64,000 nt of DNA from Nocardia salmonicida NBRC 13393 (GTDB lineage Bacteria; Actinomycetota; Actinomycetes; Mycobacteriales; Mycobacteriaceae), in the NCBI RefSeq assembly GCF_001613085.1, contig NZ_BDBR01000023.1, positions 62,001-126,000 on the forward strand. Reading direction: 5' to 3'. The notes beneath the pieces were generated by a model. It did not search any database and was not told the DNA's origin. It was given only the letters and a program-made list of their open reading frames with translations. Both the position numbers and the translations under genes were made by a program. Below, in pieces: positions 1 to 25,746 of the stretch (positions are counted from its first letter, which is position 1; every line of letters begins with the position of its first letter).

Positions 1-3000
1 AGGGGCCCCTCGAAGTGGCCCTGTTCAACAGGGCAGTGCACGAGGCGTGCGAAGAGACCGAGTCGCTCATGGTGCGGGTGGTCGAGGTGGAAGGGCGTCC
101 CTACCAGGTCGTCGACCGCGGCATCACGTTCAACGAACTCGTGCTCGATCTCGGCACGCACGGCGATCCGATGTCAGCGGCGCTGGAATGGATGCGCAAC
201 GATTACACGCGACCGGTCGACCTCACCCAGCACCAACTCGCGATCACTCGACTGATCAGAATCAGTGACGACCTGCACCTGTGGTACGCGCGTGCGCACC
301 ATCTCGTCATCGACGGGTACGGCGCGTTCAACGTGTTGAGCAGGGTCGCCGAGCACTACAACGCGATGTTGGAAGGCAGGCCGCCGGCGCGGCTGATGGC
401 GGTTCCCCTGCGTGACATCGCCGCGGAGGAGCAGGCCTATCGGGCGGGTTCACGGTTCGAGGCCGATCGCCGGTACTGGCTGGACAAGGTCGTCGATCTG
501 CCCGCGCCGACCGGGTTGTCCGGTCGTTCGGCGCGCGCGGGAACCGTGGACGAGGTTGCCGCACGCGAACTTCCGGCTGAGCTGTGGACGCTGCTCGATC
601 GCCGCTCGGCCGAGCTCGACGCGTCGGCCGCACAGGTCGTCGTCGCGGCGTTCGCGGCCTTCTTCACGCGGATGACCGGTGCCGACGAAGTGGTGCTCTC
701 TGTCCCGATGAGCGCCAGGGTCACCGTGAAGCTGCGCAATGCCGCGGCGATGCTGGCCAATATGGTGCCGATCCGCTTCGCGATCGACGACGCGACCACC
801 GTGGCGCAGTTGGTCAAGGCCTCGATCGCCGAGCTGATCTCCGCGTTGCGTCATCAGCGTTACCGCTTCGAGGACCTGCGCCGCGAGTCGCCCGCGATCG
901 ACAACTCCGCCAACACTTTCGGGCCCGTCCTCAACATCTTGTTCTTCGACTCCGAGATCCGCCTCGGCGACGCCGTCGGTCGCTACCACGCGCTCACTTC
1001 GGGCGCGCTCGAAGACCTTCAGATCAACCTCTACCGGACCGGGCCGAACGCACCGCTGCTCATCGAGCTGCACGGCAACGGCAATCTCTACAGCAAGCGC
1101 GATATCGACGCCCACGCCGATCGCTTCATCGAATTCCTGCGCCGCTTCATCGGGGCCGACTCCGACGAGCGTGTGGTGGAACTACCGTTGGTGTCGTCCG
1201 CGCAGGAGGACGCGATCGTCGACGAGTCGGCCGGTGTCGAGGGCATCGCCCCTGCTGAGACCTTGGTGGATTCGCTGGCGCGACAGGCTGATTCGACCCC
1301 GCTCGCGGAGGCGGTCACCGCCGACGGCGAGACGATCACCTATCGCGACCTCGATGAGCGTTCCACTCGGCTCGCCCGGCGTTTGATCGCCCGCGGCGCC
1401 GGTCCGGGTGCGCTGGTCGCCCTCGCCCTGCCGCGCGGTACCCGGCTGATCGTCGCGATGCTCGCGGTCCTGAAATCCGGTGCCGCGTATCTGCCCTTGG
1501 ACCTCGGTCATCCATCCGAACGACTGGAATACATTGTCGGTCAGGCGGATCCGACGGTTGTCATCGTCGAGGACTCCGCGCTGGCTGTGGGCGGCGATCG
1601 GCTGGTTCTCGAGCCCGGCGACGACCTCGACGGTGCCGCTGACCCGATCACCGATGAGGACCGCACCGCGCCACTGCGACCCGACGATGCCGCGTACGTC
1701 ATCTTCACCTCCGGGTCTACGGGTCGGCCCAAGGGCGTGGTGATCAGCCACCGTTCGGCTGTCACCTACCTGGCGAATGCGTGTGCCGCTCTGGATATTC
1801 GGGCCGACGACGTGTGGACTTGGCTGCATTCGGTGGCCTTCGACTACTCGATCTGGGAGGTCTTCGGACCGCTGGTCACCGGCGGTCGCGTGGTGGTCGT
1901 CGATACGCTGACAGCGCGCGCTCCTGATGAACTGGTGCGGCTGACCGCCCGTGAAGGCGTTACCGTGTTCAGCCAAACTCCCTCGGCGTTCTATCAATTC
2001 GCCGCGGCTCGCCGACGGCACCTCGCGGCCGAGACCCCCGATGGGGAGCTGGCACTGCGGGTGGTCGTGCTGTCCGGTGAGGGTCTGGACCCGGCGGCGT
2101 TGGCGCCCTGGTACCAGGACAACCCGGCCGGACCGGTCCTGGTCAACAGCTACGGCATCACCGAGACCACCGTGTTCGTCACCCGCACCGAGATGAGTGC
2201 CGACCTGGCCGTACCCGGCGCACCCAGTGTGATCGGCACGGCCCTGCCCGGCCTGCGCACCTACGTGCTCGATCGGCGCCTGCGGCCGACGCCGGTGGGC
2301 GCATGGGGTGAGATCTACGTAGCGGGAACGCAATTGGCCCGCGGCTACCTCGGTCAGCCCGCACTGAGCGCGGGCCGGTTCGTCGCCGACCCGTGGGGTG
2401 CGCCGGGGGAGCGGATGTACCGAAGCGGAGATGTGGCCCGCCGCAATCACGACGGCGAGCTCGAATACCGTGGCCGCGCGGATCAGCAGGTGCAGCTGCG
2501 CGGGTTCCGCATCGAACTCGACGAGGTCCGTGCCGCGCTGCTGGCCCATCCGGCGGTGGCTTCGGCCGCAGTGGTGGTGCATCGCGCCGATACCGACGCG
2601 GCACGTCTGGTGGGCTACGTCGTGGTGACCGGTACCGACTGTGATGTCGATGCCGTTGTCGCCCAGGCGGGTTCGTTGCTGCCGGACTACATGATCCCGA
2701 ATGTCGTCATGGTCGTGGACGAACTGCCGTTGACGGTCAACGGCAAGCTCGACCTGCGCGCCCTGCCCGAACCGGCAGCGGCGGCCACAGCGAGCTATGT
2801 CGCGCCGCGGACCGAGGCCGAAGAGACTGTCGCGCAGGTCTTCGCCGAGGTGCTCGGTGTGGAACGGATCGGCGCGTTCGACAGCTTCTTCGAGGTGGGC
2901 GGCAACTCGCTCACCGCGGCGGGCGCCGTCGTGCGGGTCGCCGATGCCACCGAATGCGAACTGTCGGTGCGTGATCTGTTCGCCAACCCGACCGTGGCCG

Positions 3001-3030
3001 GATTCGCCGAGTACGTCGGCCGGGCGCGGC
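1..3030 (+). other. NRPS module 1: C-A-PCP, Thr-like
   Basis: The C domain (HHLVIDG at about nt 298) is cut by the window edge. It resembles first-module C domains that accept an acyl starter, in the style of EntF, rather than the internal C domains of this protein. The A domain has [10 protein letters not shown] near nt 1708. Aligned to GrsA positions 235, 236, 239, 278, 299, 301, 322, 330, 331, its pocket reads D-Y-W-S-V-S-S-V-F, a variant of the threonine-type D-F-W-x-x-G-M-V-H. The carrier domain has a normal GGNSL serine motif near nt 2900. Starter acylation and threonine are inferences. Further modules in an upstream gene cannot be excluded. Confidence 0.75.
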
Positions 3031-6000
3031 GCCGGGTGCGGCCCGCCCTGGCACCGATCGCGCGGGACGGACTGCTGCCGTTGGCTCCCGCACAGCACCG
3101 GATGTGGTTGATCAACCGCGTCGACCCGGAGTCTGCCGCCTACAACATTCCCCTGGTCCTGCGGCTGTCCGGCCGGCTCGACTCCGCTGCCTTGCGCGCG
3201 GCGCTGGGCGACGTTCTCGATCGCCACGAGTCGCTGCGGACCCGCTACCCCGCCCACGACGGCCACGGCACACAGGAGATCCTGTCGACCGAGGCGACCC
3301 TGACCGAATTTTCCTGCGTCCCGGAACACGTCGAGGAACAGCGGCTCGCCGACCGGCTTCGCGAGCTGACCGCCGACGGCTTCGACGTCTGCGCCCGACC
3401 ACCGCTGCGCGCGGTCCTGCTCACGACCGGCCACGACAGTCACGTGCTGGTCCTGGTCCTGCATCACATCTGCTGTGACGGTGCGTCGCTGGCACCGCTG
3501 GCCGTCGACTTCGCCACCGCCTACGCTGCGCGGTCGCAACAGATCGCTCCGGACCAGCTGCCTCCGAGGGTGCAGTACGCCGACTACGCGGACTGGCACC
3601 GTCGCCTGCTCGGCGACGAAACCGATCCGGACTCGCTCGCCGCGGACCAATTGCAGTACTGGACAACTCAATTGGCAGATGCGCCCGCAGTGCTCGAGCT
3701 GCCGTCGGACCGGCCGCGGCCTGATCGCCGTTCGATGCGCGGCGGGGTCGTCGCCACCACGCTTCCCGCACGGACCTATGCCGACATCGAGCGACTCGCC
3801 CGCGCCGCGGACCTCACCCCGTTCATGGTCGTCCACGCCGCACTCGCCGTCCTGCTGGCTCGGCTGTCGGGCACCGGCGACATCGTCATCGGCGCCCCGC
3901 TGGCCGGTCGCGGCGAGCCGGACCTCGCGCCGCTGGTGGGAATGTTCGTCAACACCGTGGCGCTGCGCACGCCGGTTCGCGGCGACGAATCGTTCGCCGG
4001 CTTCCTCGAACGCGTCAAGGACATCGACATCGACGCTTTCGCGCACGGCGACCTGCCGTACGACCGGGTCGTGGAAGAGCTCGATCCGCGCCGCTCGGGG
4101 GCCTATGCGCCCGTGTGTCAGGTGTATCTGTCCTTCGACAACACCGAACTGCCCCGCCTGACCCTGCCCGGCCTCACGGTGGACGTCCTCGATCCGGGCG
4201 CCGAACCCGCGAAGGTCGACCTCGTCGTCACCATCGACGCGAACGCCGCGCACACCGGCGACGTCGCGCTGCGCATCAACTACGCGACCGACCTGTTCGA
4301 CCCCGCCACCGTCGAGCAGATGGCCGCACGGCTGCGCCGCATCCTCGACGCGGTGGTCGCGAACCCCTCCGTGCCGGTCGGCGATGTGGAGTTGCTGTCC
4401 ACCGCCGAACGTGGCGCGCTGCAACCTGTTCAGGGTGCGGACGCGGTACCCGGCGTACCGCTGGCGGATCTGCTGGCTCGTGGCGCCGCGATCTCGCCGG
4501 ACGGTCCGGCGGTCGTCTCCGGCACCGAACAGCTGGACTTCACGGAGCTGGACGCGCTGTCGAACCGGTTCGCCCGCCGGCTGCTCGACGAAGGCGCCAG
4601 ACCCGGCGAGGTGGTGGCGATGGTCCTGCCGCGCTCGCTCGATTTCGTGGTGGCGGTGTGGTCCGTCGCCAAAACGGGCGCGGCCCTGGTGCTGATCGAC
4701 CCGCGCAATCCGCAGGACCGGATCCGCTCGATGCTCGCCGACAGCGCACCCAGGGTGGTCTTGACCAGCGCCGAGGTCGAGGGCGCTGCGCCCGAGGGGC
4801 CGTGGGCGTTGCTGGTGGTAGTTGATCCCGTCTCGCGCGCCGTCACCGCCGGGTACTCCTCGGCGCCGGTAACCGATATCGATCGAGGCAGGCCGGTGCA
4901 CCCCGGCGACGTGGCGTACGTGATCTACACCTCCGGCACGACCGGTGTTCCGAAGGGCGTCGAGGTCACCAACCAGGGGCTGGCGAACTTCGCCGCCGAA
5001 CAGCAGGACCGCTATGACGTCGAGCCCACCGTGCGGGTCCTGCAGGCCGCGGGTCCGGGGTTCGACGCGGTGATGCTGGAGATTCTGCTCGCCCACCCCG
5101 GTGGCGCCGCACTGATCGTGTCCCCGCCCGAGATCTACGCGGGCGCGGAACTGGCGGAACTCATTCGTGCACAAGGGGTTACCCATGCCTTCCTGACGCC
5201 GACCGTCCTCGGCTCGATGTCACCGGAGAACCTGGAGTGCCTGCGGGTGCTGGTCTCCGGTGGCGAAGCCTTGACGGCCGACCTCGGCGCGACCTGGGCG
5301 CCGGGGCGTCGGCTGTTCAACGGCTACGGCCCCACCGAAACGACGATCATGGTCGCGATCAGCGACCCGATCTCCCCGCAGGGTCCGATCACCATCGGCG
5401 GACCTATTCGCGGCATCTCCGCGCAGGTCCTCGACGCCCGGATGCAGCCGGTGCCGGTCGGTACGGCGGGCGAACTCTACGTCGGTGGCGTGCAATTGGC
5501 GCGCGGCTACCTCGGTCGGCCCACGGTGACAGCGGCCAGTTTCGTCGCCGACCCCCGCGGTGCGGGCACCCGGATGTATCGCACAGGCGATCTGGTCCGG
5601 TGGACCTCGGAGCAGACCCTGCAATACCTGGGCCGCGCCGACCATCAGGTGAAGATCCGCGGGCAGCGCACCGAACTGGGGGAGATCGAAGCGGTACTCG
5701 CACAGGACCCCTCGGTGACCCACGCCGTCGTGGTGATCCACGACAGCACAGGCGCCGACCGCCTCGTCGGCTATCTGGTCGGCGCGGGCATCGACGCGGA
5801 GCGGGTACGCGCGACCGCGCGCGACCGGCTTCCCGCGCACATGGTGCCCGATGTGTGCATGGTGCTCGACCGGTTCCCGCTGACCGCCAGCGGCAAGCTC
5901 GATCGTGTGATGCTGCCGGAGCCGGTGTTCCCGCACACGGCTGCCGACATCGCGCCGCGCACACCCGCCGAACAACTCGTCGCCGATGTCTACCGCGAGG

Positions 6001-9000
6001 TGCTCGGCGCGACGCGGGTGAGCGCGCTCGACAACTTCTTCGACCTGGGCGGAAACTCGCTCACCGCGACCAAGGTCGCGGCTCGCCTGTCCGACGCGTT
6101 CGGCACCGACGTCGCGGTGCGAGCGCTGTTCGAGACGCCCACCGTCGACGCGCTCGCCCGCGAGCTGGCTTCGATCGGCCCGCAGGCCGGTCCGGGTACG
6201 GGCCACCGCCGTCTGGTACCCCAGCAGCGGCCGGATCGGATTCCGCTCTCGCCCGCGCAGGCCCGGATGTGGTTCCTCAACCAGTTCGACACCTCGGCGG
6301 CGGTCTACAACGTGCCGGTTGTCGTGCGGATCTCCGGACCACTCGATGTCGACGCGCTGCGGTCAGCGCTCGCCGATGTGATCGACAGGCACGAGACGCT
6401 GCGCACCCGGTACCCCGACAGCGACAGCGGACCGTGGCAGGAAATCCTGGCACCGCACTCGGAACCGCGGCTCACGTGCGCCGAGGTCACCGAGGCCGAG
6501 ATCGCGGACCGGATCGCGCACGAGACCGCCCTCGGATTCGACGTGAGCACGGAGGTGCCGTTCCGGGTCGCGTTGCTGCGCACCGCGGCCGAGGAGTGGA
6601 CGGTGGTGCTCACCGTGCACCACATCGCCATCGACGGATCCTCGCTCGCGCCGCTGGCCGCCGACCTGGCCGTGGCCTACCGGGCCCGGATGGCAGGCGA
6701 GACACCGGCTTTGACGCCGCTGCCGGTCCAATACGCCGATTACACGCTGTGGCAACGGCGAAACCTCGGCACTCAGGACGACCCGGCGAGCGTGACCGCC
6801 GACCAGATCCGGTACTGGGTCGCGGCGCTGGCCGACCTGCCGCAGATGCTCGATCTGCCGACCGACCGCCCCCGACCCGCGCGACAGTCCTACCGTGGCG
6901 CGACCATGTCGGCCACGATTCCCGCCGACCTGCATCGCGACATCATCGCCCTCGCACGTCGCCACGACTCGACGCTGTTCATGGTGACCCATGCGGCGTT
7001 CGCGGTCCTGCTGGCACGGCTGTCTGGTACCGAGGACATCGCGGTCGGCACCCCGGTCGCCGGGCGCGGCGAACCCGCCCTCGACCCGCTGATCGGCATG
7101 TTCGTCAACACGCTGGTGTTGCGCGTGCGGGTAGATCCCGCGGCGCCGTTCACCCAGGTGCTCGACCGCGCCCGCGAATGCGATCTCGGCGCGTTCGACA
7201 ACGCGGGCATCCCGTTCGAACAACTGGTGGAGGTCCTCAATCCACCGCGAAGCACCGCGCACGAGCCGTTGACCCAGGTCGGCTTCTCGTTCCAGAACAT
7301 CGACATCCCGACGCTGCAACTCGGCGGCCTCACGGTGGCCGCTGATCTCGTCGAACCGGGTGTCGCCAAGTACGACCTGCACCTGACCCTGGTCGACACG
7401 ATGGACTCGAACGGCGCCCCCGGCGACATGCAGGTCGAATTCGGTTATGCGACCGATCTTTTCGACGAATCCACGATCGCGCCGATCTTCGAGCGGTTCC
7501 TCGCGATCCTGCGTGGTGTCGTCGCCGATCCCGGCTTGCCCGTGGGCGACCTGCCGCTGCTCAGCCCGCGTGAACTCGACGAACTGTCGCTGCGGGAATC
7601 CGGTCCGGACGCTCCCACGGACGGCTCGACGATCGCGGACCTGTTCGCGAAGCAGGTCACGGCGACACCGGAACGCACGGCGGTCATCGACGGCGACAGC
7701 GATGACGTGCTCACCTACGCGGCGTTCGCCGCCGAGGTGAACGCGCTGGCGCGAGTGCTGATCGGCCACGGTATCGGGCCGGGAAGTCTGGTGGCCGTGG
7801 CAATGCGCCGTTCGGTCGATCTGCTCACCGCGCTCTACGCCATCCACGCGACCGGCGCCGCCTACCTCCCGCTGGATCCGGACCACCCCGTCGACCGGCT
7901 GCGCACCGTGCTCACCGCCGCACGACCTGACGGTGTGCTGATCCGTGACGACATCGACCTGCCGACGCGGGCGCCGGTCTGGCGGTTGTCGGACCTCAGC
8001 CCGGCCGCGACCGATACCTCGCCGGTCACCGATGCCGATCGGATCAGGCCACTGCGCCCGAACGATCTGGCCTACGTCATCTTCACCTCCGGGTCGACCG
8101 GGGTTCCGAAGGGTGTCGCGCTCACCCACGAGGCGGTTGTCAACCAACTCCGTTGGCTCACAGCGCATTACCGTATCGGCGTCGGCGACGTGCTGCTCCT
8201 GCGCACCCCCGCCACTTTCGACCTGTCGGTGTGGGAGTTGTTCACCGCCCCCACCTCCGGGGCCGCGTTGGTCGTCGCCGGGCGCGAGGATCACATCGAT
8301 CCCGCTGCCGTAGCCGGACTGATCGCCCGTCACGACGTGACCGTGGTCGATTTCGTGCCCTCGCTGCTGTCGGCGTTCCTCGACCTCGCGAGCCCCGACG
8401 ACCTCGCCACGATCCGCCAAGTGCTGTGCATCGGTGAGGCTTTGGACTCCGAGACCGTTGCCCGGTTCCGCGAGGTCAGCCAGGCGCGCATCGACAACCT
8501 GTACGGCCCGACGGAAGCGGCCGTCAGCGTCACCGCCTATGAAATCGGCGAGCTCGACGGACCCGTCGTGGCGATCGGCACGCCCGAAGCGAATGTCGTC
8601 GCGCACGTCCTCGACGCCCGACTGCGCCCCGTGCCCTCCGGCGTCACCGGTGAGCTCTATCTCGGTGGCATCCAACTCGCCCGCGGCTACCACGACCGCG
8701 CGGACCTCACAGCCGCTGCCTTCGTGGCCGACCCGTTCGGCTCGGTGCCGGGCGCTCGCCTCTATCGCACCGGCGACCTGGTCCGCTGGGACACGACTGG
8801 CCGGCTGCGCTACGTCGGCCGCCGCGATTCCCAGGTGAAGATCCGCGGCCTGCGCGTCGAACTCGGCGATATCGAAGCCGCGTTCCGCGCACACGACCAG
8901 ATCGGCGCCGCGATCGTTCGAGTCCATCAGGTCGCCGACGGGCAGGTGCTGGTGGCCTACACGGTGAGCGACGAGGCGATCGCCCCCGACTCGCTGCGGA

Positions 9001-12000
9001 CGTATCTGCTGGGACGCCTGCCCGCGTATATGGTGCCCGCCCAAATGATTCGGATCGACGCGGTGCCGCTCACGCCCAACGGCAAGATCGACTACCGCGC
9101 CCTCCCCGCTCCGGACACCCGCGTCGGCTCGACCCGGTACCGGGCTCCCAGCGGGATCGTCGAGGAAACGATCGCCGGTGTGATCGGTGAACTGGTGCAG
9201 ACACCGTGGATCGGCGCCGACGAGAATTTCTTCACCCTCGGCGGCAATTCGCTGTTGGCGACCCGAGTGCTCAGCCGCATCGGCGAAGTCCTCGGCGTGA
9301 CGATTCCCGTGCGCGCCATCTTCGAAGCCCCGACCGTGGCCGAGCTGGCTCGGTGGGTCGAACGTCAGCGCGCGGTCGGTGATGTCGCTGGCCCGGTGGC
9401 GGCGGTGCGGCCCGAGCGCATCCCGCTCTCGCCCGCGCAGAGCCGGATGTGGCTGCTCAACCAGTTGGACCCCGAGTCCGCGAGTTACGTGGTGCCACTG
9501 TCGATCAGCCTCGACGGTGACCTCGATACCGAGGCCATGCGGGCCGCGCTGCACGATGTGATCGAACGACACGAGATCCTGCGCACCACCTATCCGGCCC
9601 ACGACGGCACCCCCGCGCAGGTCGTGCTGAGTGCCGAGGAAGTCGTCGCGTCCTGCGATCTCGCCGTGCGCCCGGTGTCGACGGATGTCCTGATCGAGGA
9701 GCTGACGCGGTTCTTCGGCGTCGGATTCGATGTCGCGGTGGGCGCCCCGCTGCGGGTGGCGCTGTTCCGAATCACCGAAACCGCGCACGCACTGGCACTC
9801 TCGGTGCACCACATCAATTGCGACGGCTATTCGGTAGCGCCGCTGGCCGCCGATATCATCGAGGCCTACCGCGCACGCAGAGTCGGCGCGGCACCCGAAT
9901 GGGCTCCGCTGCCAGTGCAATTCGCTGATTACGCCCTGTGGCAGCGCGAACTGCTCGCCACACCCGACTCCGCGCCGGGCCGCGACCTACTGTATTGGCG
10001 CACCCAGCTCGCGGGGCTCCCGGATGTGCTCGCGCTGCCCACCGATCGCCCGCGCCCGCTCGAACAGTCCCATCGCGGGGCGACGGTCCACGCAGAGGTA
10101 CCCGCTCACGTCGCCGAAGCCGTGGCGGCGTCGGCGCGGCGCGACGGGGTGACCCCGTTCATGGTGGCGCACACCGCCTTGGCCGTCCTGCTGGCGCAGT
10201 TGTCGAGTAGCGACGACATCGCCATCGGGATCCCGTACGCGGGTCGCGGCGACCGCTCGCTGGACCACCTCGTCGGCATGTTCGTCAACACGCTCGTCCT
10301 GCGTACCCGGGTCCGCCCGGAGCAGCGGTTCGCCGACCTGATCGAACTGACCAGGCGCACCGATATCGAGGCCTTCGATCACGCCGCTGTTCCGTTCGAA
10401 CAGCTGGTGGAAGTGCTGAATCCGGCTCGCTCGACCGCACATTCACCGTTGTTCCAGGTGATGCTCGCCTACCAGAACATGGCGCCCGCCCAGCTCGACG
10501 TGCCGGGGCTCGAGATCGCGGGCATCGATGTCGGCGCCGACGCGGCGATCTGCGATCTGCTGCTGATGATCACCGAGGACCGAGGCCCGCACAACGAGAT
10601 CACGGGCATGAATCTGCGCCTGACCTACGCCACCGATCTGTTCGACGACACCACCGCACGCCGGTTCACCGAACAGCTCGTCCGCGTGCTGGACGCTGTC
10701 ACCGCCGACGCCCAGACCGTCGTCGGCGAGATCGACCTCGCCGACGAAACGACCCGCACCCGTCTGCTGCGCCCGCACGACGCACCACTGGTGAGCCCGC
10801 ACCGCACGCTCGTCGACGCCTTCGACGAGCAGGTAGCACGCACCCCGGACGCCCCCGCCATCCGAGTGCCCGGCGGTCGCGTCCTCACCTACCGTGAGTT
10901 CGACGCGGACGTGAACCGTCTCGCTCGTCACCTCATCGATCTCGGCGCGGGCCCCGAAACCACCGTGGCGGTGGCGATTCACCGTTCGATCGACATGGTC
11001 ACCGCCGTCTATGCCGTTGTGAAGTCCGGTGCCGCCTTCGTTCCGCTCGATCCCGACTACCCGACCGCACGGCTGGCCCACGTCGTGGCGGTCGCCCAAC
11101 CGCTGCTGGTCGTCACCGTCACCGGCGACGAGAGCTCCCTTCCCGACGAGCTGTCTCGAGTCCGGCTCGACGAGCTCGACCTGAGCACACAACCCGCCGG
11201 ACCCGTCGGCAACGACGAACGCCGCGCACCACTGCGCGCAGACAACACCGCCTATGTGCTGTTCACCTCCGGCTCGACCGGTGCGCCGAAGGGCGTGGCG
11301 CTCTCCCATGCCGCCACCACCCACCAGTTGGCTTGGGCCCAAGCCGAATTCCCGCACGACGCCTCGGATGTGGTGCTGCACAAGACCCCGATCACCTTCG
11401 ACATCGCGGTGTGGGAGTTGTTCTGGCCGTTGCAGACCGGCGCGCAGATCGTCGTCGCCGAACCCGGCGGCCACCGTGATCCCGGCTACCTGGCCCAGGT
11501 CATCGCGGACGAGCGGGTGAGCACCGTGCACTTCGTCCCGTCGATGCTCGATGTGCTGCTCGAGCACCCGGGCACGACCCAGCTGTCCTCGGTTCGCTAC
11601 CTCTTCCCGGCGGGCGAGGCGTTGGCCCAGCGCACCGCTGAACGCGCCGGGCAGGTTTTCGATCGGGCCGAGGTGGTCAACTGGTACGGACCCGCAGAAG
11701 CCGAGGTCGTGACGGCCTACCGATGCACGACAGATCCCGCTGCGCCGCAGAGCGTTCCGATCGGGTATCCGGTCACGGGGATGTCCGCCTATGTCCTGAA
11801 CGCACGACTGCGGCCGGTCCCCGCCGGTGTCGTCGGCGACCTGTACGTCTCGGGCGCCCAGCTGGCCCGCGGCTACCAGGACCGCCCCGATCTCACCTGT
11901 GGGGTATTCCTCGCCGACCCGTTCGGCGCGCCGGGGGAGCGCCTCTACCGCACCGGCGACCTGGTCCGCTGGACGCCCACCGGCGCCCTGGAGTTCTTCG

Positions 12001-15000: not shown

Positions 15001-18000
15001 TGAATCGGCCGGGGGCGAGCGCTGCCGCGTTCGTGGCCGACCCGTACGGTGCGCAGGGCACCCGGATGTATCGCACCGGTGACCTGGTGCGCTGGAGCGC
15101 TGAGCACACCATCGAATACGTGGGTCGCGCCGACTTCCAGGTCAAGATCCGCGGTCAGCGCGTGGAACTCGGTGAGATCGACGCGGCGCTGGTGGCCTGC
15201 CCGAACGTCGCCACCGCGGTCACCGTGAGCAGGCGCGGCAACGCGGGACAACCGCTGTTGGCCGCCTATCTGGTGGCTGACGAGGGTCGAACGATCGATA
15301 CGGCCGCGATCCGCGAGCAGATCTCGGGCGCGCTGCCCGAACACATGGTGCCCGCCGTGTTCACGGTTCTCGATGAGATGCCGGTGTCGTCGACAGGCAA
15401 GGTGAACCGGCGCGCACTGCCCGAACCCGATGTCGAGGTGCCGGATTCGGTGGTCACGGCCGCGGCGACCGAACTGGAAGCGACCATCGCGGGGATCTTC
15501 GCCGAGGTGCTCGGTGTGGCCTCGGTGGGGGCCGACGAGTCGTTCTTCGCACGCGGCGGTGACTCGATCATGTCGATCCAGCTGGCATCGCGATTGAAGA
15601 CGGCCGGCGTGGTCGTGACGGCACGAGACATCTTCGAGCACCGGACTGTTCGCGGACTGGCCGTCGTGGCCGAGGACGCGGGACGGGTGACCCTGGAAGA
15701 ACTGCCCGGTGGTGGCATCGGGGAGGTAGCGCGGACCCCGATCGTTTCCTGGTATCTGGATCGTCCGGCCGGTGACCGGTTCGCGCAATCGTTGCTGGTC
15801 GAGTTGCCCGGCGACGCACGGGAGACCGACGTGGTCGCCACGGTCGGCGCCGTGCTCGACCGACACGACATGCTGCGCGCACGACTGAGTGGCACGGAGG
15901 TCGACGCGCACCTCGAGGTCTTGCCGCGCGGCGCGATCGATGCCCAGCGGGTGGTGTCGGTGCGTACCTTCGGGACCGAGAACATGCCTGGCAGCATGGG
16001 GTTCACGGCGCTCGTCGAGGACGCGCTCGAGGAAGCGTCGGCCCGACTGAGTCCCGTCGATGCAGCGATGATGCAGGTCGTCTGTCTGGTGCCGGACCCC
16101 GGCGTGGCGTCGCCGGGGCGCGCGCTGATCGTGATCCACCACCTGGTGGTCGACGGTGTGTCCTGGCGCATCCTGATCCCCGACTTCGTCTCCGCGTGGC
16201 AGCAGCTCGGCGAGGGCCGAGCGGTCGAGCTGCCCGAAGTCGGCACATCGATGCGCCGCTGGGCGCAGGCCGTGACGTCGGCAGCCGACAGCCGTGTCGA
16301 CGAGCTCGCACTATGGCAGCGAATGGGGTCCCGTCCCGAACCGCTGCTCGGGCGGGCCGCACTCGACCCGACTGTCGACGTGCACGCCACGGTCGAGCGG
16401 ATGACGCTGATCCTTCCTGTCGCCCTGACTACCGCCCTGATGGGTGCGGTGCCACGTGCCGCGCATGCCACCACCGACGACGCCCTGCTGGCGGGTCTCC
16501 TGCTGGCACTGGGTCGTTGGCGCGCCGAACGCGGCGTCGAGCACCGTGGTGCGCGGATCCTGCTCGAAAGCCACGGGCGCGCGGAACAGCTCGCCCCTGG
16601 CGCCGACCTCTCGCGCACCGTCGGCTGGTTCACCAGCGCCTACCCGGTGGACCTCGACATCGACGGCACCGATCCGCGCGCCGCCGTGAAGGCGGTCAAG
16701 GAACAGTTGCGGGCCGTGCCCGACAAGGGCATCGGCTACGGCATGCTGCGGTACCTCCACGCGGCGACGGCCCCGCAACTGGCGGCGTCGGCCGAACCGC
16801 AGATCAGTTTCAACAACCTGGGCCGTGCGGGCGTCGATCTCGCGGCGCTGTCCGGTGTCGCGTGGATTCCCGCCGGGGAGGACTTCGACCACCAGGCGGC
16901 CTTCGACCCCGACATGCCCGCCGCGGCGACACTGTCCATCGATACCAGCATCGTCGACACCCCCGACGGTCCGGTTCTGTCCGCGCAGATCGGTTACGCC
17001 ACAAGGCTTCTCGATGACAGCGAGGTCCGCGAACTGCTCGACGAGTGGGCCGCCGCACTGCGTGAGATCGCGGAAATATCGGCACGAGAACATGATTGGG
17101 GTCTGTCCCCGTCCGATACACCGTTGGTCGCGCTGACCCAACAGGACCTGGACATCTTCACCGAACGCTACGGGCCGATCGAGGCAGTCTGGTCGTTGGC
17201 GCCCTTGCAGGCGGGACTGCTGTTCCATGCCGAGCTGGCCGTGGGCGAACTCGATGTGTACACGGCGCAGTCGGAGATGACCCTCACCGGGCCGGTCGAC
17301 GAGGCCCGGCTTCGGCAGGCCGCGACGGACCTGCTGCGGCGGCATCCGAACCTGCGAGCCGCGTTCACCCGAACGATCGATGGTGCTGTCGCGCAAGTTG
17401 TTCCGGTGGATGCCACCGTGCACTGGCGCACCGTCGCGGCTGCTGAGGCGACGCTGCCGGAGATCCTCGCGTCCGAACGCGAGCGGACTTTCGACCCCGC
17501 CGATCCGCCACTGGTGCGATTCGTGCTCGTCCGGGTCGCGCCCGCCGAGTTCCGGCTGATTCTGACCGCGCATCACCTGCTGCTCGACGGTTGGTCACTG
17601 CCGTTGCTGCTGCGCGATCTGGTCGGGCTCTACGCGGCCGGTGCCGACGCGAGCCTGCTGCCTCCGGCGCCGTCCTACGGCGACTACCTGGGCTGGCTGG
17701 ACCGGCGCGACACCACCGCCGGGTTCGAGATCTGGCGCGAGACGATGGCGGGCTTCACCGAACCCAGCCTGATCGCCGAAACGGTCGGCGAGGCCACCGT
17801 CGAGGTACCGACCGACCTGACCATCGATCTCGACGACGACATCACCACCGCCCTGACCGAACTCGCTCGCGCATGCGGCGCCACGATGTCGACGATCGTG
17901 CAGTTCGCCTGGGCGACGGTGCTGGCCAACCAACTCGGTCGCGAGCGGATCGTGTTCGGCGAGACGGTCTCCGGCAGGCCGGCCGAGGTGCCGGGCATCG

Positions 18001-21000
18001 AGTCGATGATCGGGCTGTTCATCAACACGCTCCCGGTCCCGGTCCATGTACAGGGTGACCGGACCATCACGGCCGCGCTGGAACAGTTGCAGGCGAACAA
18101 GACCCGGCTGCTCGATCACCATCACATCGAACTGTCCGGCATCATGGCCGCGGTCGGCGGCGGACAACTGTTCGACACCCTGGTGGCGTTTGAGTCCTAC
18201 CCGGTCGACAGCAGCGGACTCGGCGACGCCGACATCGACGGGGTCCGGGTCACCGACGTGGTCGGCACCGATGCCGCGCACTACCCGATCACCGTGCAGG
18301 CCCACCACACCGACACCTTGCACATCCGGGTGCGGTACCAGGCGGCTCGGGTCGACGGCGCGACCGCGGCCGGGCTGGCCGACCGTATCGAGCGCGTGCT
18401 GCGCGCCGTCGCCGCCGACCCGAGCGGGCGCGTCGGCGACATCGACCTGCTGTCGGCGGCCGAGCGCGCGGCGCTGGTTCCGGCCAGAGGCTCGGAGGGG
18501 GTGGCGCCCGAGGCGTTGACGGAGCTCTTGCGGCACGGCGCGACCCGGCACCCGGACGGTGTGGCGGTGATGAGCGGGTTCGAGACGGTGAGCTTCGCCG
18601 AGCTGGATATTCGCGCGCATCGGTTGGCGCACTGGCTGATTCAGCGCGGCGTCGACACGGGCGACACCGTCGGCGTGGTCATGCCGCGTTCGACCTCGTT
18701 GATCACGACGATCTGGGCGCTGGCCGAGGTCGGGGCCGCGAGTGCGCTGCTCGATCCGCGCAACCCGGATGAGCGGCTCGCGGTCATGCTGTCCGACTGC
18801 GGCGCCCGCGTCGTGTTGACCGTCGACGAGGTGAGCGACGGAGTGCCGGAAGGGGAGTGGGCACGGTTGGTCGTCGACGATCCGGCCGCGTTGCGCCAGA
18901 TCGCGGACCAACCGGCGCGCGCTGTCGCGCGCACGGTCCGCGACACCGACTTGGCCTATGTCATCTACACCTCCGGAACCACCGGCAGGCCCAAGGGGGT
19001 AGCGGTCACCCAGGCTGGCATGGCGAATTTCGCCACCGAGCAGCGGGATCGGTACCAGGTGACCCCGGAATCGCGGGTGCTGCAGTGTGCCGCACCAGGA
19101 TTCGACGCGGTCATGCTCGAAGTCCTGATGGCCCACCCACACGGCGCTACGCTGGTCATCTCACCGCCCGACACCTACGCGGGCACCGAGTTGGCCGGCA
19201 TCATCCGGGACAACGCGGTCACCCACGCCTTCCTCACACCGACCGTGCTCGCGACCATGTCACCGAACGGGCTCGACAGCCTCGCGGTACTGGTCGCCGG
19301 TGGTGAGGCGGTACCGGCCGAACTCGCCGCCCTCTGGGCGCCGGGACGCCGACTGTTCAACGGCTACGGACCCACCGAGACCACCATCATGGTCGCGATC
19401 AGCGAGCCCCTTTCGCCTCCCGCGCCCATCACCCTGGGCGGCCCGATTCGCGGGACCTCCACCGTGGTGCTGGATTCGCACCTGCGGCCCGTGCCGATCG
19501 GGGTGACCGGCGAGCTCTACGTCAGCGGTATCCAGCTGGCGCGCGGATACCTCGGCCGGCCGGCCGCCACCGCCACGACATTTCTCGCCAACCCCTACGC
19601 CCCGGGCACCCGGATGTACCGGACGGGCGACCGCGTTCGCTGGACGGCCGACCACACGCTCGACTACGTCGGCCGTGTCGACCATCAGGTCAAGATCCGT
19701 GGCCAGCGGATCGAACTCGGCGAGATCGAGGCCGTCCTCGCCGAACATCCCGCCGTCGCCCACGCGGTAGTGCTGCTGCGTACCGACGACCACGGCACGG
19801 ACCGGCTCGTGGGCTACCTCATCGGTGACGCCGTCGACCCCGAGCAGGTGCGCGCCTCGGCCCGCCGCCGACTGCCCGCCCACATGGTTCCCGACATCTG
19901 CGTGGTGCTGGGGCAGCTGCCACTGACCACCACCGGAAAGCTCGACCGTGGCGCTCTACCGATGCCGGCCTTCGCCGCCGTCGGCTACCTGGCGCCGAGC
20001 GATCCGACCGAGCGCCTCGTCGCCGAGGTCTGCGCCGAAGTGCTCGACCTACCCCGAGTCGGCATGCGGGACAACTTCTTCGACCTCGGCGGCAACTCGC
20101 TGACCGCGACGAGGCTGACCGCGCGACTGAGCTCGGCACTGGGCATCCGGGTGTCGGTGCGCGACCTGTTCGAGTACCCGAGAATGGTCGACCTCGCCGC
20201 CCGGCTCACCGGCCACGACCACGTCGAACGTCCCGCACTGACCCGGCGGCCCGACAGCGGCCCGGTGCCGCTCTCACCCGCCCAGCAGCGGATGTGGTTC
20301 CTCAACCAGCTCGACGCCTCCGTGGGTGCCTACAACGTGCCCTTGGTGATTCGGCTGAGCGGAGGGCTCGACATCTCGGCGCTGCGCACTGCCTGCGCGA
20401 TGGTGATCGGGCGACACGAATCTTTGCGCACGAAATTCCCTGTGGTAGAAGGTATTCCGCAACAGGTGATCGTCGACGCTGACGAGGTCGTGCCCGACCT
20501 GATCCCGGTCGCCATCGAGGAATCGGTGCTGCCGAAGGCCGCCACGGCAGTGCTGTCGGCCAGCTTCCAGGTCACCGCGGCTCCGCCGGTGCGGGCCGAA
20601 CTGTTCGACCTCGGGTCAGACGAGTACGTGCTGGTGATCGCCATACACCACATCTGCGCGGACGGCCTTTCGATGATTCCCCTGGCTCGCGACGTCGCGG
20701 CCGCTTATCACGCCGTGACCACCGCGAGCTCGCCCGCATGGCCACCGCTCACCGTGCAGTACCCCGATTACGCACTGTGGCAGCATGCTCTGCTCGGCGA
20801 CGAGCACGATCCGGAGTCGCTGCTGTCGCGGCAGCTGGACTTCTGGCGAGACACGCTCGCAGGGCTGCCGGAACTGCTCGAGCTGCCCACCGATATGCCC
20901 CGCCCGTCGGTCGCGTCCATGCGGGGCCGGATCGTCGACTTCGCCATCGAGGCACGGCTGCAGGAGCGCATCGGCGCGGTCGCGCGGGCGGCCGGCGCGA

Positions 21001-24000
21001 CGCCGTTCATGGTGGCGCACGCCGCGTTGACCGTGCTGCTCGCGCGGCTGGCGGGCACCGGCGATATCGCGGTCGGCACACCGGTGTCCGGGCGCGGGGA
21101 ACGCGAACTCGACGATCTGATCGGCATGTTCGTCAACACTGTCGTCCTGCGTACAGCGGTGTCGGCCGATCAGCCCTTCGACGCGCTCCTGGCCGACGTC
21201 ATGGCCGCCGACCTGGCAGCGCTCGCGCACGCGGAGGTCTCCTTCGAACAGGTCGTGGAGGCGCTGAACCCGACGCGTTCGACCGCGCACCTGCCGCTCT
21301 ATCAGGTGACGATCGATTACCAGAACCTCGATCAGGTGGTCCTCGAACTGCCGGGGATCACGGTGGAACCGGTCGAGGACTACATCGAACAAGCACAGTC
21401 CGATCTCAACGTGAAGCTGGTCGAACGCTTCGACGCCGACGGCAACCCGCTGGGCACACTCGGCCGATTGACCTACGCCACCGACCTTTTCGTCGAAGAA
21501 TCGATGGAGCGGTTCGCGCAGTGGTATGTGCGGATCCTGGAGGCGGTGACCGCGGACCCGCAGGCCGTGATCGGCGACATCGAGTTCATGGAACCGGCGC
21601 AGCGCCACGAGGTTCTCGATGCGGCAGGTGTGGCGGGCGCGCAGGTTCCTGAGGAAACGATCGGTGGTCTGTTCGCACGACGGGTGGCTGTCGCCCCGGA
21701 TTCGGTCGCGGTGACCGATGGGACGACTGTTCTGACCTACGCGGAACTGAATCGGCGCGCCGAGGCCGTCGCCGCCCGGCTGATCGCGGCGGGCGCCGGT
21801 CCCGAAACGCTGGTGGCCGTGGCGTTGCCGCGCACCGCTGATCTGGCGGTCGGACTGTTGGCCGTGGTCATGTCGGGTGCGGGCTATCTGCCCCTGGATG
21901 TGGCGTATCCGGCCGAGCGGCTGCGCTTCGTGCTCGACGACGCGCGACCGGTGGCGATGCTGACCACCGCGACGATGTCTTCGCAGGTGCCCGAATTCAG
22001 CGGGCCGATACTGCTTCTGGACGACGACGCGGTCGCCGAGAGCGGGCACGACGGTGCCGCGCGCCCGGACAATGTCGCCTACATGATCTATACCTCCGGC
22101 TCCACCGGTCGGCCGAAGGGTGTCGCGGTCACCCACCGCGACGTGGTCACCCTGCTCACGAACGCCGCGGAGAATTTCGACGTCGGGGCCGACGATGTGT
22201 GGACGCTGTTCCATTCCTACGCTTTCGATTTCGCAGTCTGGGAGATGTGGGGCGCACTGCTCTCAGGTGGGCGTCTGGTGGTCGTCGATTACGACACCAC
22301 CCGCACACCCGACGCCTTCGTCGAGCTCGTGGCGCGCGAACAGGTCACCGTGCTGAGCCAGACGCCGTCGGCGTTCTACGGATTCGTCGACGCGGAGCGC
22401 CGCTACCGTGGCGCGGACGGCGACGAGCTGGCGTTGCGCTACATCGTGTTCGGCGGCGAAGCGCTCGACCAGGCCCGGCTGACCGGCTGGTTGCTCGCCC
22501 ACCCGGCGGGCTCGCCGCGACTGGTGAACATGTACGGCATCACCGAGACGACGGTCCACGTCAGCTATGCCGAAGTCGATCAGGCCGGTACCAGCGGGAT
22601 CGGCCGTGCTTTGCCCGGTATGGCGGTGTACGTGCTCGACGAGCGGTTGCGGCCGGTGCCTGCCGGTGTCGCCGGTGACCTCTATGTCGGCGGCGGACAG
22701 CTCTCGCGCGGCTACCACGGCCAGGGCGCGCTCACCGCGGGCCGATTCGTCGCCGATCCGTTCGGCACGCCGGGTAGCCGCCTGTACCGGACCGGTGACG
22801 TCGGCCGGTGGCGTCGCGGCGAACACCGACTGGAACTGGACTACCTCGGACGCGCCGACGCGCAGATCCAATTGCGCGGTTTCCGCATCGAATTGGGTGA
22901 GGTGGAATCGGCGCTGCTCGGCCATCCCGGCGTTGCCCAGGCGGCTGCCGCGGTGCACCGACACGCCAAGGACGTCGACCAGCTGATCGGGTATGTCGTG
23001 CCCGTCGACGGGCAGGAACTGGACCCGGCGCAGGTTCGTGACACCGCCGCGAGGCTGCTCACCGGTTACATGGTGCCCTCGGCCATCGTGGTGCTGCCGG
23101 CGCTGCCGGTGACGGTCAACGGCAAGCTCGACCGAAACGCCCTGCCCGCGCCCGACTTCGAACCGTCCGAACGCGAATACGACGAGCCGCGAACACAGTC
23201 CGAGATCGCGATCGCCGAGGTGTTCGCGCACACCCTGAACGTGGCCAGGGTCGGGGCCGCGGACGGATTCTTCGACCTCGGCGGCAACTCGCTGCTGGCG
23301 ACCATGGCCGTGGCAGAACTCCACGGCCGTGGAGTCCGGATCGAGCTGCCGTGGATGTTCGACGACGCGACACCGCGGGCACTGGCCCGCAGAGTCGACG
23401 AAGCCGAGGGCGGATCGGGCATGCAGGTGCTGCTGCCGCTGCGGCCCGCGGGTGATGCCGCACCACTGTTCGCGATCCACCCGGCGGGCGGGCTCGCCTG
23501 GTTCTACGGCGGACTCGTGGGGCATCTGCGCGGCGACCGGCCGGTATTCGGCTTGCAGGACCCGCACGTCGTCACCGACGAACCCGGCGCCACCTCGATC
23601 GATGAGCTCGCACACCGCTACGTCGACGAGATCCGCCGAACCCAGTCCAGCGGGCCCTACCACCTGCTCGGCTGGTCGCTGGGCGGCGAGATCGCCCATG
23701 CGGTGGCGACTCGACTACAGGAGCAGGGCGAACAGGTCGCGCTGTTGGCGATGATGGACAGCGCGGTCGGCGCCCCGCCGATCACGCCCGACACCGGTTC
23801 CGCACCGGGCGAGTTGATGGCTGATCTGCTGGGTGGCTGGCGGGAACTGTTCGACCTCGGCGACACCGTCACCGCGAGCACCACCGAGCAGGCCTGGCAG
23901 GTGGTCCGCGATCAGATCACCGGCACCGGTTTGTTCACCGCCGACCAGATCGACCGGGTGATGGAAAGCTTCTCCACCGCAGGCGAACTCGCCGACGCCT

Positions 24001-24203
24001 ACCGGCCCCGGACCTTCGACGGTGACCTGATCTTCTTCACCGCGGGCAAGGATCGTGACGACACCGAAGCCGTCGCCCAGACGTGGCGACCCCATGTCAC
24101 GGGCCGCATTCACAACACCGTTCTCGACGCACGCCATCTCGAGCTGACCCACCCCTCCGCGCTGGCCGTGATCGGCCCGATCCTCGAAGGATTCATGCAC
24201 TGA
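1..24203 (+). CDS. Seven-module non-ribosomal peptide synthetase, 5' end outside the window
   Basis: Assembly-line enzyme that selects, activates and joins amino acids into a peptide and releases it through a C-terminal thioesterase. The frame is open from the window edge, and the first visible residues already lie inside a condensation (C) domain, so the true start is upstream. Counting residues from position 15, the order is C 1-410, A 418-925, PCP ~960; C 1018, A 1475, PCP ~2013; C 2070, A 2535, PCP ~3076; C 4th 3130, A 3590, PCP ~4135; C 4190, A 4650, PCP ~5182, E 5235-5690; C 5710, A 6165, PCP ~6692; C 6745, A 7210, PCP ~7756; TE 7805-8062. Every C domain keeps an intact HHxxxDG motif. 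A MbtH partner is not visible here. The stop codon overlaps the next start (TGATG), so the methyltransferase is probably co-translated. Domain order is certain; substrates are inferred. Confidence 0.97.
3060..6190 (+). other. NRPS module 2: C-A-PCP, Val-like
   Basis: The C domain opens with the LAPAQHRMW core and has HHICCDG near nt 3461. The A domain pocket reads D-A-L-F-V-G-G-I-M, which keeps the D-A-L/F-x-x-G-G frame of valine-type pockets. The carrier has GGNSL near nt 6050. The pocket is the same as in module 6, and the C-terminal half of the A domain is also very similar there, so both modules probably load the same aliphatic residue. Confidence 0.75.
6225..9380 (+). other. NRPS module 3: C-A-PCP, substrate unclear
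   Basis: The C domain has HHIAIDG near nt 6619. The A domain belongs to the clade with a TFDxxVWELF stretch followed by FVPSxL. Its pocket reads D-L-W-D-L-I-L-V-S, with an aspartate at 278 and isoleucine at 301 that match no signature I know. The carrier has GGNSL near nt 9240. No epimerase follows, and the next C domain (HHINCDG) shows no extra dual C/E histidine motif. A D-residue here would therefore need direct loading of a D-amino acid or a partner racemase. Confidence 0.7.
9405..12540 (+). other. NRPS module 4: C-A-PCP with altered core motifs
   Basis: The C domain has HHINCDG near nt 9808. The A domain pocket reads D-I-W-H-F-A-W-V-V. The alanine at 301 and the V-V pair recall proline pockets (D-V-Q-x-x-A-H-V-V), but tryptophan at 239 does not. 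Two core motifs depart from the other six modules: the A5 motif reads GPAEAE instead of GPTE (near nt 11690), and the carrier reads GVNSL instead of GGNSL (near nt 12415). The phosphopantetheine serine is kept, so the carrier may still work. Substrate not assigned. Confidence 0.7.
12575..17090 (+). other. NRPS module 5: C-A-PCP-E, D-Ile-like
   Basis: The C domain has HHIAADG near nt 12976. The A domain pocket reads D-A-M-F-T-G-V-I-A, close to isoleucine-type pockets. The carrier is of the GGDSI type (near nt 15558) that typically precedes an epimerase. The epimerase follows with [10 protein letters not shown] (near nt 16138), an [14 protein letters not shown] stretch and GIGYG, all intact. 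It is the only epimerase in the visible protein. Epimerising L-Ile at the alpha carbon would give D-allo-Ile. Confidence 0.8.
17140..20215 (+). other. NRPS module 6: D-accepting C-A-PCP, Val-like
   Basis: This C domain starts with [11 protein letters not shown] and has HHLLLDGWS near nt 17571, the form expected of a DCL domain that accepts a D-configured donor, which fits the epimerase just before it. The A domain pocket reads D-A-L-F-V-G-G-I-M, identical to module 2. The carrier has GGNSL near nt 20088. Confidence 0.8.
20255..24203 (+). other. NRPS module 7 with terminal thioesterase, Thr-like
   Basis: The C domain has HHICADG near nt 20647. The A domain pocket reads D-F-W-S-V-G-M-V-H, a clear threonine-type signature with the usual [11 protein letters not shown] context. 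The carrier has GGNSL near nt 23280. The type I thioesterase carries GWSLGG (nucleophile serine near nt 23680) and a late histidine in ARHLELTH. A terminal TE of this kind releases the chain by hydrolysis or macrolactonisation; which one cannot be read from the sequence. Confidence 0.85.
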
Positions 24204-24979
24204 TGACGACCACACCGCAGCAATTGCGCCTCGACGACGGCCGCACCGTCACCTGCACCAGCCCCGCCGAAGCACGCATGCTCTGGAACGAGATGATCGC
24301 CGATGGGTACTACCGCCGAGCCGCCGCCACCCTGCGACCCGGTGACCTCGTCGTCGACGTCGGCGCCAATATCGGACTCAGCGCGATGGTGTTCGCCGAA
24401 ACGCACCCCGGCGTGCGGGTGATCGCGGCCGAACCCGCCCCCGCCACGTACGAGTGTCTGCACCGGAATATGTCGGCGCACGTGCCCGACGGTGTCGCCC
24501 TCGAGGTCGCGGTGGGTGCCGCACCCGGTGTGCTGCCGTTCACCTGGTACCCCCGAGCCACCGCGAACTCGAGCCTGTACGCCGATCGGGAGGCCGACGA
24601 CGACGCGACGAAAACCTTCCTGCGCAACAGCGGTCTGCCCGACGACGCGATCACCCTCATCACCCGCGGCCTGCACGACGGCGAGCAGATCGATGTCGAG
24701 GTCACCACGGTGTCGGCGATCCTGGCGCAGGAGGACCCCGCCGCCGAGATCGGTGTACTCAAGATCGACGTCGAACGAGCCGAATTCGATGTCCTGCTCG
24801 GCATCACCGAATCCGACTGGTCCCGGATCCGCTCCGTCGTCGCCGAGGTACACGACCACGAGGGCCGCCTCGCCGAATTCTGCGAGGTCCTCGAACTCCA
24901 CGGCCTCACCCCACGAAGTCGCCAGGATTCGTCGTTGGCAGGCACCGAACTACACGAGGTGTACGCCGTTCGGGTATGA
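24203..24979 (+). CDS. FkbM-family SAM-dependent methyltransferase
   Basis: Predicted 258-residue O-methyltransferase. The SAM-binding loop is VVDVGANIGLSAMVF near residues 49-63, followed by the acidic AAEPAPATYE and the family's KIDVERAEFDVL near residues 190-201, as in FkbM proteins. I chose the ATG at 24203 because it overlaps the NRPS stop as TGATG, a common sign of translational coupling; a longer in-frame reading to 24083 would sit inside the NRPS. Its position makes it the best candidate for tailoring the NRPS product, for example by methylating a hydroxyl or carboxyl group. The target is unknown. Family assignment is firm, role inferred. Confidence 0.88.
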   Translation: MTTTPQQLRLDDGRTVTCTSPAEARMLWNEMIADGYYRRAAATLRPGDLVVDVGANIGLSAMVFAETHPGVRVIAAEPAPATYECLHRNMSAHVPDGVALEVAVGAAPGVLPFTWYPRATANSSLYADREADDDATKTFLRNSGLPDDAITLITRGLHDGEQIDVEVTTVSAILAQEDPAAEIGVLKIDVERAEFDVLLGITESDWSRIRSVVAEVHDHEGRLAEFCEVLELHGLTPRSRQDSSLAGTELHEVYAVRV

Positions 24980-25626: not shown

Positions 25627-25746
25627 TGAGTTGCGATTGGAGCATTGTTCGACCACTCGACGACTACCGCAGTGCGGTGTTCGTGGTGTCGCACGATCGG
25701 GCGTTGCGCCGTCGTTTCCGGGGAATACAGAAGGGAATTGAGGATC

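What the first reader, a model, noticed from the sequence alone, without database searches (positions are those of the whole stretch)
1..24203. Seven-module NRPS whose predicted peptide resembles the peptidolipin family
The modules and pocket residues give Thr-like, Val-like, unknown, unknown, D-Ile-like (only epimerase), Val-like, Thr-like, then a thioesterase. From memory, peptidolipin NA of Nocardia is a fatty-acylated cyclic heptapeptide L-Thr, L-Val, D-Ala, L-Pro, D-allo-Ile, L-Ala, L-Thr, with a known Val-6 analogue. Five of seven positions and the placement of the epimerase agree. The first C domain looks like a starter type that could take a 3-hydroxy fatty acid. I do not know of a firmly assigned gene cluster for these lipopeptides.
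Basis: partly seen in the sequence, partly recalled or inferred. Interest (0 to 1): 0.82.

Follow-up and report, generated by a model that had tools for sequence, protein, structure and literature searches.

The report
Likely peptidolipin synthetase of Nocardia
A single giant bacterial enzyme here very probably builds a fatty seven-residue ring peptide of the peptidolipin type, compounds described in 1966 for which I found no assigned genes, and a small linked methylating enzyme suggests that this strain may make a methylated version.

Summary
Positions 1-24203 are one complete seven-module peptide synthetase (8,110 aa; its first 130 bases lie before the window), no module upstream: starter-type C, seven A-T units, one epimerase (module 5), thioesterase. 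Module 7 carries a published Thr code; A-domain kinship groups modules {1,7}, {2,5,6}, {3,4}, as expected for Thr/Thr, Val/Ile/(Ala or Val), Ala/Pro.

The family is widespread: at least 62 of 148 genus genomes. All 37 complete genes read share the layout. One is in Nocardia arthritidis NBRC 100137, type strain of a species reported to make peptidolipin NA and its Val6 analogue; no other ORF there has seven A domains. Likely, not proven: no product was seen.

Two additions. (1) Peptidolipin NA is recalled to hold D-Ala3, yet module 3 lacks an epimerase in 37 of 37 genes. (2) An FkbM methyltransferase gene overlaps the synthetase stop codon; an intact homologue occurs in 47 of 62 synthetase-bearing genomes and 0 of 86 others; N. 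arthritidis keeps a remnant. The window strain may make an O-methylated Val6 peptidolipin.

The parts
1..24203 (+). Seven-module NRPS, whole gene except its first 130 bases (full gene C23:61871-86203, 8,110 aa)
1..1190 (+). C1, starter (lipo-initiation) type condensation domain, approximate bounds
   Evidence: best PDB matches CDA-C1 (4jn3, 5du9) and the 7c1k group; groups with 4 C domains at NRPS starts of N. arthritidis
1224..3020 (+). A1-T1, code DYWSVSSVFK, nearest to A7 (Thr); approximate bounds
3093..6170 (+). C2-A2-T2, code DALFVGGIMK, aliphatic (Val-like); approximate bounds
6243..9365 (+). C3-A3-T3, code DLWDLILVSK (invariant in 37 of 37); Ala expected at this position; no epimerase; approximate bounds
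9423..12536 (+). C4-A4-T4, code DIWHFAWVVK; Pro expected; C4 of L-type; approximate bounds
12603..15680 (+). C5-A5-T5, code DAMFTGVIAK (Ile-like), T5 motif GGDSI typical of a carrier before an epimerase (recalled); approximate bounds
15723..17000 (+). Epimerase of module 5, the only one; approximate bounds
   Evidence: PDB matches PvdL 98-476, TycB, TycA and GrsA stretches; separate clade; same place in 37 of 37 genes
17133..20210 (+). C6-A6-T6; C6 of the after-epimerase type; A6 code DALFVGGIMK, same ten letters as A2; approximate bounds
20268..23405 (+). C7-A7-T7, code DFWSVGMVHK, a Thr/Dhb code in print; approximate bounds
23463..24203 (+). C-terminal thioesterase, expected to close the lactone; approximate start
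   Evidence: PF00975; GWSLG
24203..24979 (+). FkbM-family methyltransferase, 258 aa; its ATG shares one base with the NRPS stop codon
   Evidence: PF05050 and TIGR01444 over cut-off; conservation and co-occurrence

Best explanation
The gene is the synthetase of a peptidolipin-type cyclic lipoheptapeptide. Proposed steps: a starter C domain puts a 3-hydroxy fatty acyl group (from acyl-CoA) on residue 1; seven modules add Thr-like, Val, Ala, Pro, Ile, Val, Thr; the epimerase turns residue 5 into the D-form (D-allo-Ile) and C6 accepts it; the thioesterase closes the C-terminal Thr onto the fatty-acid hydroxyl. Shown: module number and order, single epimerase, starter-type C1, TE, Thr code of module 7, kinship groups of the A domains, the same synthetase in a species reported to produce peptidolipins. 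Inferred: residues 1 to 6, the fatty acid, the ring. In this strain A6 has the same pocket letters as the Val-like A2, so Val6 is expected, and the coupled FkbM methyltransferase probably adds an O-methyl to the lipid or a Thr hydroxyl.
For: Complete gene, seven modules, nothing upstream. Starter-type C1. E only at module 5 and C6 of the after-epimerase type. A7 = published Thr/Dhb code. A-domain identities in the window gene: 1-7 52%, 2-6 62%, 2-5 50%, 5-6 49%, 3-4 47%, all others 36-42%; a labelled 2-3-2 split of seven positions has 210 arrangements (arithmetic). Same layout, five of seven codes identical, in N. arthritidis NBRC 100137, a species from whose type strain IFM 10035 peptidolipin NA and its Val6 analogue were isolated (PMC11364655 passages; NBRC 100137 is called type strain in a PMC7600791 passage). 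Of 56 A domains over cut-off in that genome, no other ORF holds seven.
Against: No product, expression or mutant was seen. A3 and A4 codes are not canonical for Ala or Pro (recalled tables), and the codes of A1 to A6 were found in no held paper (main texts only). Module 3 lacks an epimerase although peptidolipin NA is recalled to have D-Ala3. The N. arthritidis genome is a draft with other NRPS pieces at contig ends, one carrying DALFVGGIMK, an E-type carrier and DIWHFAWV, so another assembly line there is not wholly excluded. No N. asteroides or N. mangyaensis locus, the other species reported to make peptidolipins, was among the 80 loci kept; that search can leave out records near the window genome and needs exact patterns, so this is not proof of absence. 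The peptide sequence of peptidolipin NA is recalled, not read.
Confidence: 0.75

Rival explanations
1. A related but different lipoheptapeptide: same architecture and acyl start, but residues 3 and 4 (and perhaps 1) are not Ala, Pro and Thr; peptidolipin in N. arthritidis would then come from another, fragmented synthetase.
For: A1, A3 and A4 codes are non-canonical and not in held papers. N. arthritidis has other NRPS pieces at contig ends with aliphatic and A4-like codes. No E domain for D-Ala3.
Against: No other ORF in that genome has seven A domains; the Thr/aliphatic grouping fits; among the other ORFs read there (45 of 49 further A domains) I saw none with an epimerase-bearing fifth module and a final Thr code.
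Confidence: 0.16
2. A linear lipopeptide acid: the thioesterase hydrolyses rather than cyclises, and the methyltransferase caps the lipid hydroxyl, as the fmt product does for mycobacterial glycopeptidolipids.
For: A coupled gene of a methyltransferase family known for O-methylation (the chemistry is recalled); fmt is listed as fatty acid O-methyltransferase in the glycopeptidolipid locus (PMC1885439 passages). A methylated 3-hydroxyl could not form the lactone.
Against: The synthetase is also kept where no intact methyltransferase is found, and N. arthritidis, one of the species with reported products, makes peptidolipin NA (that it is a lactone is recalled).
Confidence: 0.06

Closest known systems
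Peptidolipin NA and L-Val6 peptidolipin NA (N. asteroides ATCC 9969, N. arthritidis IFM 10035)
   Same: Seven residues, acylated N-terminus, Thr-like first and last, aliphatic 2, 5, 6, D at 5 (structure recalled); the gene family is present in the N. arthritidis type strain
   Different: No epimerase for the recalled D-Ala3; this strain keeps a coupled methyltransferase of which N. arthritidis has only a remnant; A5 and A6 codes differ from N. arthritidis
Peptidolipins B-F (ascidian-derived Nocardia sp., Wyche 2012; seen only through passages of reviews)
   Same: Same compound class; Val6-like by recall
   Different: Residue list and configuration not read here; producer genome not identified
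Mycobacterial glycopeptidolipid locus (mps1, mps2, fmt)
   Same: Lipopeptide NRPS with a lipid O-methyltransferase gene in the same locus (PMC1885439 passages)
   Different: Tripeptide-aminoalcohol core, glycosylated, several D residues; no single seven-module synthetase
CDA-C1 and 7c1k-type starter C domains
   Same: C1 is closest to these among solved structures (that 7c1k is a starter domain is recalled)
   Different: 188 bits at best; the acyl chain is not predictable

Membership tests
Peptidolipin synthetase | Exactly seven modules in one line, none upstream | tested here: met
   seven A domains in 37 of 37 complete genes read
Peptidolipin synthetase | Acyl start (starter C domain) | tested here: met
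   type of domain only; the acyl group itself is untested
Peptidolipin synthetase | Thr at residue 7 | tested here: met
   code DFWSVGMVHK, listed under Thr/Dhb-activating domains, where it is said also to take a modified Thr; no assay
Peptidolipin synthetase | Thr at residue 1 | tested here: inconclusive
   DYWSVSSVFK, not found in held papers; nearest to A7, 52%
Peptidolipin synthetase | Val2, Ile5, Val/Ala6 | tested here: inconclusive
   one kinship group; codes not found in held papers
Peptidolipin synthetase | D-residue at 5 by an epimerase | tested here: met
Peptidolipin synthetase | D-Ala at 3, L-Pro at 4 | tested here: inconclusive
   no epimerase in module 3 in 37 of 37 genes, N. arthritidis included; A3 and A4 codes not decisive; residues recalled
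Peptidolipin synthetase | Present in a known producer and best candidate there | tested here: met
   N. arthritidis NBRC 100137; draft genome, other pieces exist; N. asteroides and N. mangyaensis not reached
Peptidolipin synthetase | Product seen and lost on gene removal | not testable with these tools
   needs LC-MS and a mutant
FkbM methyltransferase | Match over curated cut-off | tested here: met
   PF05050 56.2 bits (cut-off 22.7); TIGR01444 111.1 bits (cut-off 37.7)

The most novel reading that the evidence does not exclude
A genus-wide peptidolipin synthetase family whose products are diversified by a dedicated, repeatedly lost FkbM O-methyltransferase and by swapping of A domains inside the gene: the window strain makes an undescribed O-methylated Val6 peptidolipin, N. 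aurantiaca a Thr4 peptidolipin, and D-Ala3 is set by an A domain that picks D-Ala directly, not by an epimerase.
Probability: 0.3. Interest if true: 0.66.

Novelty: new member of a known kind. Interest (0 to 1): 0.52.

Why it matters
Peptidolipins are cited from 1966 on (reference list seen) and are reported as moderately antibacterial and weakly cytotoxic, but no gene cluster was named for them in the papers I could search (open-licence papers only, no MIBiG or web). A concrete gene, present in at least 62 of 148 genus genomes, makes their biosynthesis directly testable and predicts which species should make them, which should carry a methyl group, and one with a changed residue. The missing epimerase at residue 3 gives a clean biochemical question about how a D-residue is placed.

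Tried and rejected
Extra modules upstream: rejected. The 3-module NRPS with TE that lies 3.3 kb upstream in N. arthritidis, with similar ORFs on the same contig in several kin: not at the window locus, so not taken as part. Virginiamycin-B-lyase-like gene at 25645-26592 as an immunity or ring-opening enzyme: found near the synthetase in 3 of 12 relatives examined, all three of the window's own clade, so read as local context. A6 as a recent copy of A2: rejected, only 62% identical although the ten pocket letters agree. Published codes as a key: of six codes searched, one was found (partial strings added none). Nearest solved structure for the methyltransferase: none at E 0.001. Glycopeptidolipid paper with A-domain signatures: none found. 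Primary paper on peptidolipins B-F not held; reviews used (one search showed only a reference). Structure prediction was not used: it would not settle substrate choice.

Rows dropped before counts: of 55 named Nocardia loci with 57% or more C1 identity, 35 were completed into whole genes from 33 genomes (the others end at contig edges, are further strains or copies, or were not asked for; L071 not held, L047 truncated); with the window and unnamed G114 this makes 37. Of the 49 A domains over cut-off outside this gene in N. arthritidis, 45 were read for codes. The layout count rests on segment lengths (958-1111 aa between A5 and A6 against 488-660 for the other stretches between A domains) with two H-motifs there; 5 of 37 genes showed one extra H-motif in a segment of ordinary length, read as chance. 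In one search G055 was counted as methyltransferase without synthetase; one search shows synthetase fragments there (TE pieces 64-65% identical, the methyltransferase following directly on C640), so I give 47 of 62 and 0 of 86; the other 86 genomes were not looked at for fragments. Partial or weaker methyltransferase matches (one of 65% over 116 residues, two of 42%, the rest about 30-36%, besides short remnants) are not counted as intact.
Full report
WHAT IS THERE. The window lies at G000:C23:62001-126000 of an 8.25 Mb genome in 99 contigs; all named loci with 57% or more C1 identity are Nocardia, the next is an Aldersonia at 43%. The frame 3-24203 (+) has no stop. With the upstream stretch the gene is C23:61871-86203, 8,110 aa, and its C-domain core motif starts at residue 13. 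So the synthetase is complete; only its first 130 bases are outside the window. The next gene upstream is gcvP, glycine dehydrogenase.

LAYOUT. Motifs and Pfam give C-A-T five times, an epimerase, C-A-T twice and a thioesterase. Active-site motifs of the C, E and TE domains are present. By sequence match to solved structures, C1 is nearest to CDA-C1 and the 7c1k group, C4 to 5u89, the extra domain after T5 to PvdL 98-476 and to tyrocidine and gramicidin epimerases, and C6 to C domains of PvdL, microcystin, bacitracin, surfactin and tyrocidine synthetases; which subtype each of these is (starter, L-type, epimerase, after-epimerase) is recalled. A tree of 99 C and E domains from eight family members and N. 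arthritidis places C1 with four C domains at NRPS starts, C6 in a group of 11 with the one C domain after an epimerase, E5 apart, and C2, C3, C4, C5, C7 among L-type domains (quick method, many open forks; three N. arthritidis 'start' rows and one other, on long branches, fall elsewhere, two of them in the C6 group).

RESIDUES. Ten-letter codes are given under the observation check. DFWSVGMVHK (A7) stands in print in a section on Thr/Dhb-activating domains, whose codes vary at positions 278 and 299, and is said there also to take a modified Thr (PMC12283262, passage); the positions agree with my reading of the code. The other distinct codes of the gene are in no held paper (main texts). A-domain identities group 1 with 7, 2 with 5 and 6, and 3 with 4.

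THE FAMILY. A C1 search of 148 genus genomes gives 64 matches of 59-100% identity in 61 genomes, clearly apart from the next ones at 49% and below (counted); one search adds fragments of the family in a 62nd (G055). Whole genes were read for 37: all have seven A domains and the epimerase at module 5 alone, T5 GGDSI and T3 GGNSL in 37 of 37. The commonest code is shared by 37 of 37 at A3, 36 at A7, 35 at A2, 34 at A4, but by 20 at A1, 26 at A5 and only 9 at A6 (the window has the A5 code of 5 genes, itself included). One of the 37 is N. arthritidis NBRC 100137. The species' type strain (IFM 10035) gave peptidolipin NA and L-Val6 peptidolipin NA in co-culture with macrophage-like cells (PMC11364655, passages); NBRC 100137 is called type strain in PMC7600791 (passage). 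Among 56 A domains over cut-off in that genome, no other ORF has seven. Its A6 code, DVLFMGGILK, differs from its A2 code; in the window strain A6 and A2 have the same code, so Val6 is the likelier product here (inference).

AN INTERNAL SWAP. In N. aurantiaca the module 4 code is DFWSVGMVHK, and that A4 is 91% identical to its own A7 against 84% at most to any other A domain in the set. This looks like copying of A7 into module 4 and predicts Thr4.

THE METHYLTRANSFERASE. A 258-aa FkbM-family gene starts on the last base of the NRPS stop codon. Directly downstream it is intact in 21 of 37, a remnant in 4, not found within the 1,397-1,547 bases held in 12. Of these 16, five have an intact copy elsewhere (takedensis, aurea, bovistercoris, arizonensis on other contigs; aurantiaca about 7 kb downstream); eight have none intact (arthritidis and exalbida remnants only; gamkensis, abscessus, nova, fusca, paucivorans, australiensis no match at E 1e-10); stercoris2, elegans and mikamii1 were not searched for that copy, though the stercoris and mikamii genomes have one beside their other synthetase copy. 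In N. arthritidis only the first fifth and a piece of the tail remain. On a tree of the 37 genes the state changes at least 8 times (FastTree, three joined regions). Over 148 genomes, 47 of 62 with the synthetase have an intact homologue of 63% or more identity, 0 of 86 without (Fisher p 6e-24 for the uncorrected table; physical linkage and shared descent inflate this). In mycobacteria a lipid O-methyltransferase gene, fmt, sits in the glycopeptidolipid locus (PMC1885439, passages); whether fmt is of the FkbM family is recalled. Peptidolipin NA carries no O-methyl by recall. So a species reported to make it has lost the gene, and the window strain keeps it: a methylated product is predicted here.

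THE D-ALA PROBLEM. If residue 3 is D-Ala, nothing in the gene is seen to make it: no E domain in module 3, a GGNSL carrier motif, an L-type C4, also in N. arthritidis (C4 of the window). Either A3 takes D-Ala directly, or a racemase acts in trans, or the old assignment needs another look. This is the main point against a full match.

PRIOR WORK. Komaki 2014 (PMC4035055: abstract, results parts 1-2 of 3 and the last results section; its cluster table is a figure, not seen) and the 2020 and 2025 Nocardia surveys (PMC7413640, PMC12153302, passages) were consulted. The first two describe conserved four-, three- and 7-13-module NRPS families, but in what I read none of the three names this one or links any to peptidolipins; searches found no assigned cluster. 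N. mangyaensis NH1 is reported by spectral matching to make peptidolipins (PMC10920908, passages); neither it nor N. asteroides was among the 80 loci kept, which is not proof that they lack the gene.

VERDICT. A real, complete peptidolipin-type synthetase, a new member of a known kind; the assignment is likely but unproven. On rechecking I lowered its confidence from 0.76 to 0.75 because two reported producer species were not reached.

Noticed in passing
window 25645-26592 (+): Virginiamycin B lyase-like beta-propeller (PF24684, 351 bits) close to a depsipeptide-type synthetase; found near it in 3 of 12 relatives examined, all of the window's own clade.
   Followed up: partly
L068/L141 (N. aurantiaca): A domain of module 4 is a 91% copy of the same gene's A7, an apparent intragenic swap to a Thr code.
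   Followed up: yes
L041 and L050 (N. stercoris); L061 and L090 (N. mikamii): Two diverged copies of the seven-module synthetase in one genome, with different A6 codes and, in N. stercoris, different A5 codes.
   Followed up: partly
G050, G100, G093, G120, G127, G073, G107, G106, G141, G070, G019 (places): Stretches about 30-33% identical to the FkbM methyltransferase lie inside open frames of about 9,400-11,100 aa, an NRPS-like size, in other genus members; the rest of these frames was not looked at.
   Followed up: no
L042/L124 (N. camponoti): Family member of 8,672 aa, about 500 aa longer than the rest; the stretches before A1, A1-A2, A5-A6 and A6-A7 are each longer.
   Followed up: no
L172 (N. 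arthritidis C3:153000-168500): A separate three-module NRPS with its own TE 3.3 kb upstream of the seven-module gene, same strand; similar ORFs of about 3,040 aa on the same contig in several kin.
   Followed up: partly
L166 (N. arthritidis C53): NRPS piece at a contig end with code DALFVGGIMK, an E-type carrier, then DIWHFAWV, echoing A2 and A4 of this family.
   Followed up: partly
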